A stretch of DNA of 64,000 nucleotides from Shouchella clausii (lineage in GTDB: Bacteria > Bacillota > Bacilli > Bacillales > Bacillaceae_D): the NCBI RefSeq assembly GCF_001598215.1, contig NZ_BCXJ01000002.1:62001-126000 (forward strand). Reading direction: 5' to 3'. Made by a program: the position numbers and the translations under genes. The notes beneath the pieces were generated by a model. The model saw nothing but the letters and a program-made list of their open reading frames with translations. It was not told where the DNA came from and did not search any database. Every line of letters starts with the position of its first letter. Position 1 is the stretch's first letter. Of this stretch, positions 44,439-47,771 are shown piece after piece.

Positions 44439-44798
44439 ATGGTGGATAGAGAACAAGAACTAGAAGCATTGAATGTAATCTCAATGCAAATGATTCTGCA
44501 TGCAGGCGATGCTCGTAATGATGTGATGGAAGCATTAAAATGCTGCGAAGAAGAAGAGTATGACCGCGCTGAGACGTTATTAGAAAAAGCCAATAAAGAT
44601 ATCGTCGCCTCTCATAAGCTGCAAACAGAAACCGTCCAAAAGGAAGCGCGTGGAGAGGAATCCATTTTTTCGCTGTTGTTTGCTCATGCCCAAGACACAC
44701 TCATGACAGTGAAAAGCGAATATGAACTAGCTAAACGGTTGATTCGGGTATTTAGAAGATTGGATGAAAAAATAGACGGAAAGAGAGATCAATCATGA
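44439..44798 (+). CDS. PTS lactose/cellobiose-family EIIA
   Basis: 119 residues from ATG 44439 behind AAAGGAG. Three-helix EIIA with the phospho-His in [11 protein letters not shown]. Its stop overlaps the first GH1 start by 4 bp (ATGA), indicating coupled translation. The insertion [12 protein letters not shown] between helices 2 and 3 is slightly longer than I expect for LicA. Confidence 0.92.
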
Positions 44799-46237
44799 GT
44801 TCGAATGAAGGAACTTTTCCGAAACATTTTCTATGGGGAGGGGCGGTTGCCGCCAACCAATGCGAAGGGGCTTTCGGCGTTGGCGGCAAAGGCTTTAGCC
44901 TAGCGGATGTTCACCGTTATCATTCCGATCAAGATATTGAAAAAGTGAGCCACGATTCGGACAGAACGCTTGCACAAGTAAAAGAAGCGATTGAAGACAA
45001 GGTCGGTTATTACCCAAAAAGGCACGGCATCGACTTTTACCATACGTACAAAGAAGATTTAAACCTTCTTGCTGAAATGGGCTTTAAAACCTTTCGAACA
45101 TCGATTGACTGGTCGCGGATTTTTCCAAATGGCGATGATACGGAGCCAAACGAAGAAGGGCTTGCTTTCTACGATCAGTTAATCGATGAAATCAGAAGTT
45201 TTGGGATGGAACCGATTATCACAATGCTTCACTATGAAACGCCATTGAACATTACCCTTCAATATGGCGGTTGGCATAATCGCCAAGTGATTGACTTCTT
45301 CGTTCGTTATGGAGAAGTGTTGCTCCGTCGCTATAAAGGAAAAGTAAAGTATTGGATCGTGATTAACCAAATTAATTTAATGTACCATGAATCCTTTCAT
45401 TCGGTTGCGATTTGCAAAGACCAAGTAGAGAACATGGAAGAAGCTAGGTATCAAGCTGTTCACAACCAAATGGTTGCCTCTGCTCTTATTGTCAAAAAGG
45501 CGCGAGAGGTAAGTCCTGATTTTCAGATGGGGACGATGTTAGCAGATTGTACCGCCTATCCAGAGAGTTGCCATCCAGATGATGTCGTGCTGGCCATGAA
45601 ACGAAATCGCCTCCAGTATTTCTTTACAGACGTTCAATTTAGGGGAGAATACCCTCGTTATATGAGACGTTTCTTTCAAGAAAACAGAATTGAACTAAAT
45701 GAACAAGTAGGAGATGCGCCTATCTTAAAAGCGAATACAATGGATTTTCTCGCCATTTCCTACTACTATTCTTCCATGGTTTCCGCAAAAAAGAATGGGA
45801 TGAATCCGATCGACGTAAGCCAAAACCCACATCTTAAAGCCAATCCATGGGGCTGGGCCGTTGATCCAAAAGGCTTGTATCACGCATTATGTCAATACTA
45901 TGATCGTTACCAAGTACCGATCATGATTGCAGAAAATGGTTTTGGCATGTATGACAAGCTTGAGAATGGGAGCGTTCATGACGATTACCGTATTTCCTAT
46001 TTAGCTGCGCATCTTGCACAAATAAAAGAAGCGCTGAAAGATGGGGTAGACGTTTTTGCTTATTGTGCGTGGGGACCGATTGATATTGTTAGTTGCTCTT
46101 CAGCTGAAATGGAAAAACGTTATGGCTTCATCTATGTCGATATCGACAACGATGGGAACGGCTCACGGAAAAGAATAAAAAAAGACAGTTTTTATTGGTA
46201 TCAAACCGTGATTGAAACAAACGGAGAGACGCTTTAA
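44795..46237 (+). CDS. GH1 6-phospho-glycosidase with Gln at the acid/base position
   Basis: 480 residues. The barrel start [20 protein letters not shown], the nucleophile Glu380 (MIAENGFG) and the phosphate-binding C-terminus [15 protein letters not shown] place it among GH1 6-phospho-beta-glycosidases. The acid/base motif, normally N-E, reads VINQINL: Gln192 (CAA at 45368-45370). Plant myrosinases have the same Glu-to-Gln change and cleave S-glycosides. Either the substrate carries a good leaving group or the enzyme is slow. Translationally coupled to EIIA, so it should act on the imported phosphorylated glycoside in the cytoplasm. Confidence 0.9.
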
Positions 46238-46328
46238 AAGAAGGGCGAGTTGTATTATACAGCTGAGCCTGCCTCTCTTGCTCCGCACACGTAGATGACT
46301 GACGCATTCATTAAAGGAGGCAATTAAA

Positions 46329-47771
46329 ATGAGAAAAAACCCGGACACATTTCCGAAGAACTTTTTATGGGGAGGCGCGATTGCGGCAAACCAAGCGGAA
46401 GGCGCTTATTTAGAAGGCGGAAAAGGACTTTGCGTAGCTGACATTAACAAGTTTACGGATCGCGTGGATATTAAGAAAAAAGCCAATTTGGAACTAACAA
46501 CAGAAGACATTCAATCGGCCATCGAAGACAAAGAAGGCCACTATCCAAAACGGACAGCAATTGATTTCTATCATCGCTATAAAGAAGATTTACGCATGCT
46601 TGCAGAAACGGGGATGAATTCGTTCCGTACATCGATTAATTGGGCACGGATTTTTCCAAATGGCGATGAAGCTGAACCGAATGAAGAAGGGCTAAAATTC
46701 TACGATAATCTCATCGATGAGATTATTAAAAACGGAATGGAACCATTGATCACTGTTTCCCATTATGAAATGCCGTTGCATTTAGCGACTGAATACAATG
46801 GGTGGTATAGCCGAAAAACAATTGACTTTTTTGTTCGTTACTGTGAAGTATTGTTTAATCGTTACAAAGACAAAGTAAAGTATTGGATTCTCGTCAACCA
46901 AATCAACCTAATTACGTTTGAATCCTTTAATCATCTTGGCATTCCAGCAGATCGTGTCGAAAACTTACTGGAAGCCAAATACCAAGGGGCACACAATGAG
47001 CTTGTTGCTTGTGCAAGAGCAACGAAAATAGCCAAAGAAATAAATCCCGACATGCAAATCGGCATGATGCTTTTTGATGCCATTTCTCACCCTGCCACTT
47101 GCAAACCAGAAGATGTACTGGCGACGGTTAAACGCAACCAAATGGAATACTATTTCTCTGACATTCTTATGCGCGGCAAATATCCAAATTACGCGTTCCG
47201 TTTTTTTGAAGACCATAATCTTCAAATTCAATTCGGAGAAAACGATGAAGAAGATTTCAAACATACAGCCGATTTCTTTAGCTTCTCTTATTACTATACA
47301 CGGATCTCTGACGCTGAAAGCGTCAAACAACTTAACTCGGCAAAAATTAATCCAGAGCTCGATGCGAGTGACTGGGGCTGGTCGATTGATCCGATCGGAT
47401 TAAGAACAGCTTTAAATATGTATTATGACCGTTACCAAAAACCGATCATGATTACAGAAAACGGCATCGGTGCTTATGACAAGGTCGATGCAAATGGGGA
47501 AATCCATGACCCGTATCGTATCGATTTCCTTAAACGCCACATTGAACAAATAAAAGAAGCGATTAAAGATGGTGTGGAAGTCATAGGTTATTATCCGTGG
47601 GGACCAATCGACATTGTCAGTTGCTCGTCATCCGAAATGTCGAAACGGTATGGCTTTATCTACGTCGATAAAGACGATTATGGAAACGGAACACTTGAGC
47701 GGAAGAAAAAAGACAGTTTTTATTGGTATCAAAAGGTCGTTGCCACAAATGGAGAAGATTTAGGTTCATAA
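46329..47771 (+). CDS. Second GH1 6-phospho-glycosidase, also Gln at the acid/base position
   Basis: 480 residues, clearly paralogous to the preceding gene along its whole length (same ends, [35 protein letters not shown]). Nucleophile Glu377 (MITENGIG) is intact; the acid/base position is Gln191 (LVNQINL, CAA at 46899-46901). That both paralogues keep the substitution argues that it is functional. ATG at 46329 behind AAAGGAGG, 91 bp after the first copy. Confidence 0.9.

What the first reader, a model, noticed from the sequence alone, without database searches (positions are those of the whole stretch)
44795..47771. Two GH1 6-phospho-glycosidases, both with Gln replacing the acid/base Glu, in one PTS operon
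Gln192 in VINQINL and Gln191 in LVNQINL stand where GH1 enzymes have N-E, while the nucleophiles (Glu380, Glu377) and the phosphate site (KRYGFIYVD) are intact. Plant myrosinases carry the same swap and hydrolyse thioglucosides with ascorbate as base. Both paralogues keeping it suggests selection. Together with the EIIB/C/A this could be a PTS-linked route for importing and cleaving glycosides with good leaving groups, such as thio- or aryl-glucosides. The substitution is seen directly; the substrate class is inference.
Basis: partly seen in the sequence, partly recalled or inferred. Interest (0 to 1): 0.75.

Follow-up and report, generated by a model that had tools for sequence, protein, structure and literature searches.

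The report
Sugar-cutting enzymes missing a catalytic acid
Two neighbouring bacterial enzymes that appear to cut imported, phosphate-tagged sugars have lost the textbook catalytic acid, and they belong to a large, old and well-kept branch of such enzymes with its own usual type of sugar importer, which suggests a distinct chemistry or substrate rather than decay.

Summary
Both GH1 enzymes (44795-46237, 46329-47771) carry Gln (Q192, Q191) where solved 6-phospho-beta-glucosidases have the acid/base Glu; nucleophile and phosphate loop are intact. On a tree of 150 rows all 91 Gln enzymes form one clade inside the Glu enzymes; dN/dS is about 0.05. The clade has its own usual PTS partner: Lac-family EIIC in 81 of 100 loci against 2 of 40 Glu controls, of which 29 carry Glc-type EII. 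In 78 of 84 Lac-PTS loci no Glu-type GH1 lies in the stretch held, so the Gln enzyme is probably the working hydrolase. The myrosinase reading is weak: the two myrosinase arginines recalled as binding sulfate and ascorbate are absent, and E. coli BglA, linked to glucosinolates in print, has Glu. Best reading: a functional subclade for aglycones that leave easily, perhaps helped by a new clade-specific Glu. Substrate and mechanism are inference. Ten literature searches (open-licence library) showed no report of it.

The parts
40561..42468 (-). Divergent PRD regulator (HTH_11, Mga HTH, PRD, EIIA_2 domains)
   Evidence: Pfam and NCBIfam hits; a protein similar to it in 60 of 100 Gln loci
42842..43156 (+). 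Lac-family EIIB, Cys8 present
   Evidence: Pfam PTS_IIB 59.1 bits; below NCBIfam pts-lac cut-off, 81.4 against 110; Cys8
43159..44406 (+). Lac-family EIIC
   Evidence: Pfam PTS_EIIC; TIGR00410 191.5 bits, below cut-off 236; aligns with 3qnq, F-N-I-N-E loop kept
44433..44798 (+). Lac-family EIIA, His85 of the HAQD motif present (codon starts at 44685)
   Evidence: Pfam PTS_IIA; alignment to 3k1s; position
44795..46237 (+). GH1 enzyme A; overlaps EIIA by 4 bases; Q192 at the acid/base place, nucleophile E380
45368..45370 (+). Codon CAA, Q192 of A in place of the acid/base Glu
   Evidence: alignments
45389..45391 (+). Codon of A E199, seven residues after the Gln; Glu typical of the Gln clade; aglycone side is inferred
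45932..45934 (+). Codon of A E380, nucleophile
46329..47771 (+). GH1 enzyme B; Q191 at the acid/base place, nucleophile E377; AlphaFold2 model pLDDT 95.6
46899..46901 (+). Codon CAA, Q191 of B in place of the acid/base Glu
   Evidence: alignments
46920..46922 (+). Codon of B E198, Glu typical of the Gln clade
47457..47459 (+). Codon of B E377, nucleophile

Best explanation
Shown: A and B are members of one old, monophyletic subclade of PTS-linked GH1 enzymes of the 6-phospho-beta-glucosidase type in which the acid/base Glu was replaced once by Gln and kept under purifying selection, together with other changes near the active site and a different usual PTS partner (Lac-family instead of Glc-family). 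Inferred: the enzymes work as retaining hydrolases. The PTS imports and 6-phosphorylates a beta-glucoside; E377/E380 attacks C1; because no acid is at hand the aglycone must leave without full protonation, so it is an aglycone of low pKa (aryl, enol or thio type); water then frees the enzyme with weak or no base help, and glucose-6-phosphate enters glycolysis. In some relatives an EamA-like or YitT/YczE-like membrane protein next to the enzyme may carry the aglycone out.
For: Gln in 91 of 91 clade rows, Glu nucleophile in 150 of 150; one change on the tree, SH-aLRT 98, still one change and 96 after leaving out the motif columns and five long or suspect rows. dN/dS 0.039-0.057 in five comparisons. 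Coupled changes: B188 is Thr in 59 of 59 Glu rows but in 7 of 91 Gln rows; B432 is Cys in 78 of 91; B323 is Tyr/Phe in 79 of 91 against Met or Ser in 42 of 59. Lac-type EIIC in 81 of 100 Gln loci against 2 of 40 Glu controls, Glc-type EII in 9 of 100 against 29 of 40. 78 of 84 Gln loci with a Lac EII hold no non-Gln GH1 in the stretch, so the Gln enzyme is likely to do the cutting unless a distant gene does. An acid/base Gln mutant of a 6-phospho GH1 (Gan1D-E170Q) is deposited as a complex with cellobiose-6-phosphate, 4zfm (title only), which fits slow turnover of an unactivated sugar. A Lac-type PTS can carry aryl-glucosides: celBCD of S. pneumoniae is listed for arbutin, amygdalin and aesculin, besides cellobiose and gentiobiose (PMC3302838, passages). 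Adjacent EamA-like 9 and YitT/YczE-like 7 of 100 against 0 and 0 of 40.
Against: No member of the clade has a known substrate that I could find. Lac-family PTSs also carry cellobiose and gentiobiose, whose leaving groups are poor. E198 might restore an acid/base (rival 1). Exporter-like neighbours occur in a minority of loci, the neighbour models were built from those same loci, and non-adjacent hits occur in controls too (EamA-like 2, YczE-like 1 of 40). The 40 Glu controls were picked by me from the list, come from class Bacilli only and in three cases two come from one genome; the Gln loci come from many phyla, and EII finding used the window's own proteins as queries, which favours the Gln side.
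Confidence: 0.5

Rival explanations
1. The acid/base has moved: Glu198 (B) / Glu199 (A), seven residues after the Gln, takes over as acid/base from the aglycone side, and the enzymes cleave ordinary O-glucosides.
For: Glu in 74 and Asp in 2 of 91 Gln rows, Glu in 2 of 59 Glu rows. It aligns with myrosinase R194, a residue I recall as lining the aglycone site, as I recall maize Glu1 F198 does at the same offset.
Against: 15 of 91 Gln rows lack an acid in that column, among them the third copy in this genome (Asn). No model coordinates were on hand, so no distance was measured.
Confidence: 0.22
2. A bacterial counterpart of plant myrosinase that hydrolyses 6-phospho-glucosinolates with ascorbate as base.
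For: Same N-Q motif, intact nucleophile, Tyr or Phe at the place of myrosinase F331 in 79 of 91 rows.
Against: The R194 and R259 places are not Arg (0 of 91; 1 Arg and 6 Lys of 91) and the first is mostly Glu; the Glu enzyme E. coli BglA and its relative AscB are already linked to glucosinolates (PMC8660893, Discussion).
Confidence: 0.06
3. A transferase or phosphorylase: without a negatively charged acid/base, an anion such as phosphate or an acceptor sugar frees the glucosyl-6-phosphate enzyme.
For: Acid/base mutants of retaining enzymes are known to be rescued by anions (recalled). In two related Lactobacillus loci (L088, L131) a protein that looks by eye like beta-phosphoglucomutase lies about 1.6-1.7 kb away, on the opposite strand.
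Against: No extra phosphate site was looked for; sugar-phosphate mutase-like genes were not recurrent beside the enzyme among the neighbour clusters printed.
Confidence: 0.07
4. A dead or sensing paralogue that no longer cuts.
For: Loss of a catalytic residue; Klotho shows that GH1 can turn non-catalytic (recalled).
Against: The nucleophile and Q22, H145, N190, Y322 and W424 (glucose-site roles recalled) are near-invariant; dN/dS about 0.05; in 78 of 84 Lac-PTS loci no non-Gln GH1 lies in the stretch held.
Confidence: 0.08

Closest known systems
GH1 6-phospho-beta-glucosidases with PTS partner (E. coli BglA 2xhy, S. mutans 3pn8, L. plantarum 3qom, B. licheniformis 6wgd, S. pneumoniae BglA-2 4ipl)
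   Same: Fold (query TM-score up to 0.93), nearly half the residues, nucleophile, phosphate loop
   Different: Gln for the acid/base Glu, the Thr before it mostly lost, Cys mostly for Ala near the -1 site, Tyr/Phe for Met; scores below the cut-off of each NCBIfam 6-phospho-beta-glucosidase model listed; Lac-family rather than Glc-family PTS in most loci
Plant myrosinase (S. alba, 1e4m)
   Same: N-Q in place of N-E, intact nucleophile, aromatic residue at the F331 place
   Different: No R194/R259 pair, Ser at the E464 place with a phosphate loop, PTS-linked; no evidence on ascorbate either way
C. farciminis CfPttS-CfPbgS sinigrin pathway (PMC8660893)
   Same: PTS uptake and 6-phospho cleavage of a beta-glucoside
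   Different: One-chain IIB-IIC-IIA beta-glucoside PTS; enzyme 48% and 50% identical to E. coli BglA and AscB; its acid/base residue was not seen by me
Listeria monocytogenes lmo0914-lmo0918 (locus tags recalled)
   Same: Member of the Gln clade by motif and similarity: EIIB, EIIC, EIIA, GH1 with NQIN (67% identical to A), PRD regulator, followed by vga(G)
   Different: Single Gln enzyme; in the passages I saw it is called cellobiose PTS or similar to beta-glucosidase, raised in soil extract and in mouse spleen, or listed under cyanogenic-glucoside pathways by annotation

Membership tests
GH1 (Pfam PF00232) | Profile match over the whole protein | tested here: met
   400 and 414.5 bits, cut-off 22.6
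GH1, retaining mechanism | Nucleophile Glu in ENG motif | tested here: met
   E380, E377; 150 of 150 tree rows
GH1, retaining mechanism | Acid/base Glu in NE motif | tested here: not met
   Q192, Q191; 91 Gln and 59 Glu of 150 rows
6-phospho-beta-glucosidase | Phosphate loop Ser, Lys, Tyr | tested here: met
   S431 90, K439 91, Y441 91 of 91 clade rows
6-phospho-beta-glucosidase | Met or Ala, not Trp, at the -1 site position that separates gluco from galacto (rule in PMC10360150, passages) | tested here: inconclusive
   Cys 78, Ser 6, Ala 5, Gly 1, gap 1 of 91 at B432, no Trp; that B432 is the Gan1D Trp433 place is my reading, and Cys is neither of the named residues
NCBIfam 6-phospho-beta-glucosidase subfamilies | Score over the curated cut-off | tested here: not met
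   Best 534.6 (A) and 576.1 (B) against 623
6-phospho-beta-glucosidase | Activity on a 6-phospho-beta-glucoside | not testable with these tools
   Needs purified enzyme
Myrosinase | Gln at the acid/base place | tested here: met
   Aligned with 1e4m Q187
Myrosinase | Arg at R194 and R259 (sulfate and ascorbate binding, recalled) | tested here: not met
   E198/E199 and A251/C252; 0 Arg and 1 Arg of 91
Myrosinase | Ascorbate-activated cleavage of glucosinolates | not testable with these tools
   Needs purified enzyme
Lac-family PTS | EIIA, EIIB, EIIC of the Lac/cellobiose type with His and Cys | tested here: met
   Pfam over cut-off, EIIA His85 and EIIB Cys8; but below the NCBIfam cut-offs listed

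The most novel reading that the evidence does not exclude
The clade has rebuilt acid/base catalysis from the aglycone side: the lost Glu is Gln, and a new Glu seven residues on (E198/E199), at the place of myrosinase R194, supplies the carboxylate that plant myrosinase borrows from ascorbate - a built-in ascorbate - as part of a widespread, unrecognised PTS pathway with its own importer and substrate class.
Probability: 0.18. Interest if true: 0.8.

Novelty: new variant of a known kind. Interest (0 to 1): 0.62.

Why it matters
A retaining glycosidase without its acid/base is usually met as a laboratory mutant; plant myrosinase is the best-known natural case (recalled). Here nature fixed the mutation once in a bacterial line and kept it in at least a hundred loci from several phyla, and in most Lac-PTS loci no Glu-type GH1 stands beside it. 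Such genes are annotated as cellobiose PTS and beta-glucosidase or 6-phospho-beta-glucosidase, so the substrate given may well be wrong. The clade is a clean, testable case of how catalysis is kept without the textbook residue, with natural Glu sister enzymes as controls.

Tried and rejected
Rejected: (1) a local oddity or sequencing error: the same Gln is in the same-species genome G011 and throughout the clade. (2) Two independent gains in A and B: one origin on the tree. (3) Chance matches to the pattern: of the 118 stretches, 100 hold a Gln GH1 by the position filter, two more (L066, L122) failed only that filter because their ORFs are short at the start, and in 16 I found none. (4) A universal replacement acid: among columns well filled in the clade no acidic one is near-invariant there and rare in the Glu rows; the nearest is D449, 88 of 91 against 38 of 56. 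(5) A plant-type glucosinolate pocket.

Led nowhere: ten literature searches, not all aimed at this question; I saw listings and, for seven papers, passages or sections. Only an open-licence library was searched, so 'not in print' is limited to that. Promoter and terminator scan: promoter-like sites no more than in shuffles (10 against 13.6), terminator-like sites more (11 against 5.3); one hairpin at 42745-42762 lies in the regulator-EIIB gap and was not followed. Plasmid searches gave mostly under 60% identity; of the three records I opened two are Gln (L. monocytogenes, E. ludwigii) and one Glu (E. faecium).

Rows under 420 aa and copies 95% or more identical were dropped before the tree: 220 to 148, plus the two window proteins, one of which repeats a fetched row. 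Trees are quick searches without bootstrap. In one search the pattern with N-E or N-Q gave 77 places in 27 of 396 genomes by my own sum of the table; 75 are listed, 5 of them Gln (3 in the window's genome). An earlier, narrower pattern found 2 of 398 genomes. dS against the other family is 1.0-1.4, near saturation.
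Full report
WHAT IS THERE. The window carries a divergent PRD regulator (40561-42468, minus strand) and an operon on the plus strand: EIIB (42842-43156), EIIC (43159-44406), EIIA (44433-44798), GH1 enzyme A (44795-46237, overlapping EIIA by four bases) and GH1 enzyme B (46329-47771). EIIB keeps Cys8 and EIIA keeps the His of HAQD. The five proteins pass their Pfam cut-offs but score below the curated NCBIfam cut-offs listed for Lac-type PTS parts and 6-phospho-beta-glucosidases: the operon is a divergent branch of a known kind.

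THE SUBSTITUTION. Q192 of A and Q191 of B stand on the acid/base Glu of the solved 6-phospho-beta-glucosidases; the nucleophiles E380 and E377 and the phosphate loop are intact. B is modelled with high confidence (pLDDT 95.6, pTM 0.94, 45-row alignment) and its nearest solved folds are 3pn8, 6wgd, 3qom and 8ysv. Of the same genome's 13 GH1 match rows the two window genes and one further gene on contig C1 have Gln; the others that the table shows have Glu; one 60-aa fragment (L013) does not reach the site.

A LARGE SINGLE CLADE. 100 hold a GH1 ORF with Gln by the position filter (107 ORFs, 89 full-length) and two more do on a second look. Hosts include Listeria, Brochothrix, Enterococcus, Vagococcus, Lactobacillus, Pediococcus, Erysipelotrichaceae, Clostridium, Clostridioides difficile, Lachnospiraceae, Paenibacillus, Neobacillus, some Enterobacterales, Collinsella, Propionibacteriaceae, Pelolinea and MAGs of Spirochaetia and Synergistaceae. 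In a phylum-wide sample the Gln form is the minority: 5 of 75 listed N-[QE] places, in 3 of 396 genomes. Among 79 GH1 ORFs (copies not removed) in loci fetched by similarity to B, all 15 that are 65% or more identical to A or B are Gln, at 50-56% 2 are Gln and 33 Glu, and below 50% all 29 are Glu. After removing short and near-identical rows, 91 Gln and 59 Glu rows (window proteins included) give a tree on which Gln needs one change (SH-aLRT 98; shuffled labels need 46.5 on average, none of 500 as low). Without the motif columns and five long or suspect rows it is still one change (96; 89 Gln and 56 Glu rows). Glu rows lie on both sides of the midpoint root, so Gln reads as the derived state. 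A sits in a 24-row Gln subclade and B in a 47-row one: the pair is an old duplication.

SELECTION AND COUPLED CHANGES. Besides the Gln, the clade differs from its Glu relatives at B188 (Thr in 59 of 59 Glu rows, 7 of 91 Gln rows), B198 (Glu in 74 of 91; 2 of 59), B323, B376, B422 and B432. B432 is Cys in 78 of 91 and never Trp; 6-phospho-galactosidases are said to have Trp at a -1 site position where 6-phospho-glucosidases have Met or Ala (PMC10360150, passages). If that is the same position, as I read it, this leans to a glucoside.

A DIFFERENT PARTNER. In the 100 Gln loci, Lac-type EIIC is found in 81, EIIA in 79, EIIB in 64 and a PRD protein in 60, and Glc-type EII in 9, although only 22 of 100 have 2.5 kb on both sides of the enzyme. 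In 40 Glu control loci (class Bacilli, about 9.4 kb each, 37 genomes) Lac-type EIIC is found in 2 and Glc-type EII in 29 (Fisher p about 1e-17 and 2e-13; rows are related, so p is only a guide). Of the 84 Gln loci with any Lac EII, 78 have no non-Gln GH1 in the stretch held and six do; seven of the 100 loci hold two Gln enzymes. An EamA-like carrier stands within 150 bases on the same strand in 9 of 100 and a YitT/YczE-like membrane protein in 7 of 100, against 0 of 40 for both; anywhere in the stretch the counts are 10 and 10 of 100 against 2 and 1 of 40. The two fetched stretches with the A-B pair from another family also carry the latter inside the operon. Pfam confirms EamA (152.9 and 154.7 bits in two proteins), but the YitT match is just under its cut-off in one protein and absent in two. 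These models were made from the Gln loci themselves, so the first numbers are partly circular. I read these proteins as possible aglycone exporters (inference).

MECHANISM. Established knowledge of GH1: the acid/base protonates the leaving aglycone and then activates water. With Gln both steps lose help. The engineered Gan1D-E170Q is listed as a complex with cellobiose-6-phosphate (4zfm, title). Natural conservation with an intact nucleophile therefore points to aglycones that leave unaided, or to a replacement carboxylate. The best candidate for the latter is E198/E199. It aligns with myrosinase R194, a residue I recall at the aglycone site, but 15 of 91 clade members lack an acid in that column, so it cannot be the rule for all. 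Aligned to myrosinase 1e4m, the clade lacks the Arg pair and shares the Gln and an aromatic residue at F331. So it may work partly like a myrosinase, but it fails the membership test.

WHAT IS KNOWN. L. monocytogenes carries a Gln member 67% identical to A with the same order of EIIB, EIIC, EIIA and GH1, then the PRD gene, with vga(G) next downstream, which I take to be lmo0914-lmo0918 (tags recalled). Papers report lmo0917 raised in soil extract (PMC3179493, passages) and lmo0915, called a cellobiose PTS gene, raised in infected mouse spleen (PMC2679221, passages); another lists lmo0914 and lmo0915 as cellobiose PTS genes (PMC7889195, passages), and another lists lmo0917 under cyanogenic-glucoside pathways by annotation (PMC5750592, passage). 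No substrate is shown in these passages. The PTS route for thioglucosides is known from C. farciminis (PMC8660893: part 1 of the text, passages and the Discussion), and E. coli BglA, which has Glu, is linked to glucosinolates there. Eleven L. plantarum GH1 proteins are reported active as 6-phospho-beta-glucosidases (PMC10360150, passages); I could not tell whether any of them is a Gln enzyme. None of the ten searches of the open-licence library showed a paper on the Gln clade.

CONFIDENCE. That a distinct Gln clade of single origin exists and is kept by selection: about 0.95. That it acts on activated aglycones without an acid/base: about 0.5. Moved acid/base: about 0.2. Plant-like, ascorbate-using myrosinase: about 0.06.

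Noticed in passing
G000:C1:327119-328534 (L220:5617-7035): Third Gln enzyme of the same genome in its own EIIB-EIIC-EIIA-GH1-PRD operon; it has Asn, not Glu, seven residues after the Gln; its same-species copy (L026) groups with Pelolinea and G360 members.
   Followed up: partly
   Followed up: partly
   Followed up: no
L051:696-2144: Bombilactobacillus apium carries a Gln GH1 broken over several frames, with EIIC in two ORFs too: a decayed copy of the operon.
   Followed up: no
L047, L050, L076, L085, L092, L093, L126, L155; L084, L085, L093: A small protein that looks like HPr recurs within 3 kb of the Gln enzyme in 8 loci (3 adjacent), and an EI-like protein in three, as if some operons carry their own PTS phosphocarriers. 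Names are by eye; no family search was run.
   Followed up: no
L069, L101, L138: A HAD-like phosphatase (by eye) directly follows the Gln enzyme in three loci.
   Followed up: no
L222 (Enterobacter ludwigii plasmid from strawberry): A Gln enzyme with a PTS EIIC and a carbohydrate porin lies on a plasmid typed as conjugative, IncFIB/IncFII.
   Followed up: no
window 38013-38555: Resolvase-like ORF (by eye) two genes away from the regulator; not checked for a mobile element.
   Followed up: no
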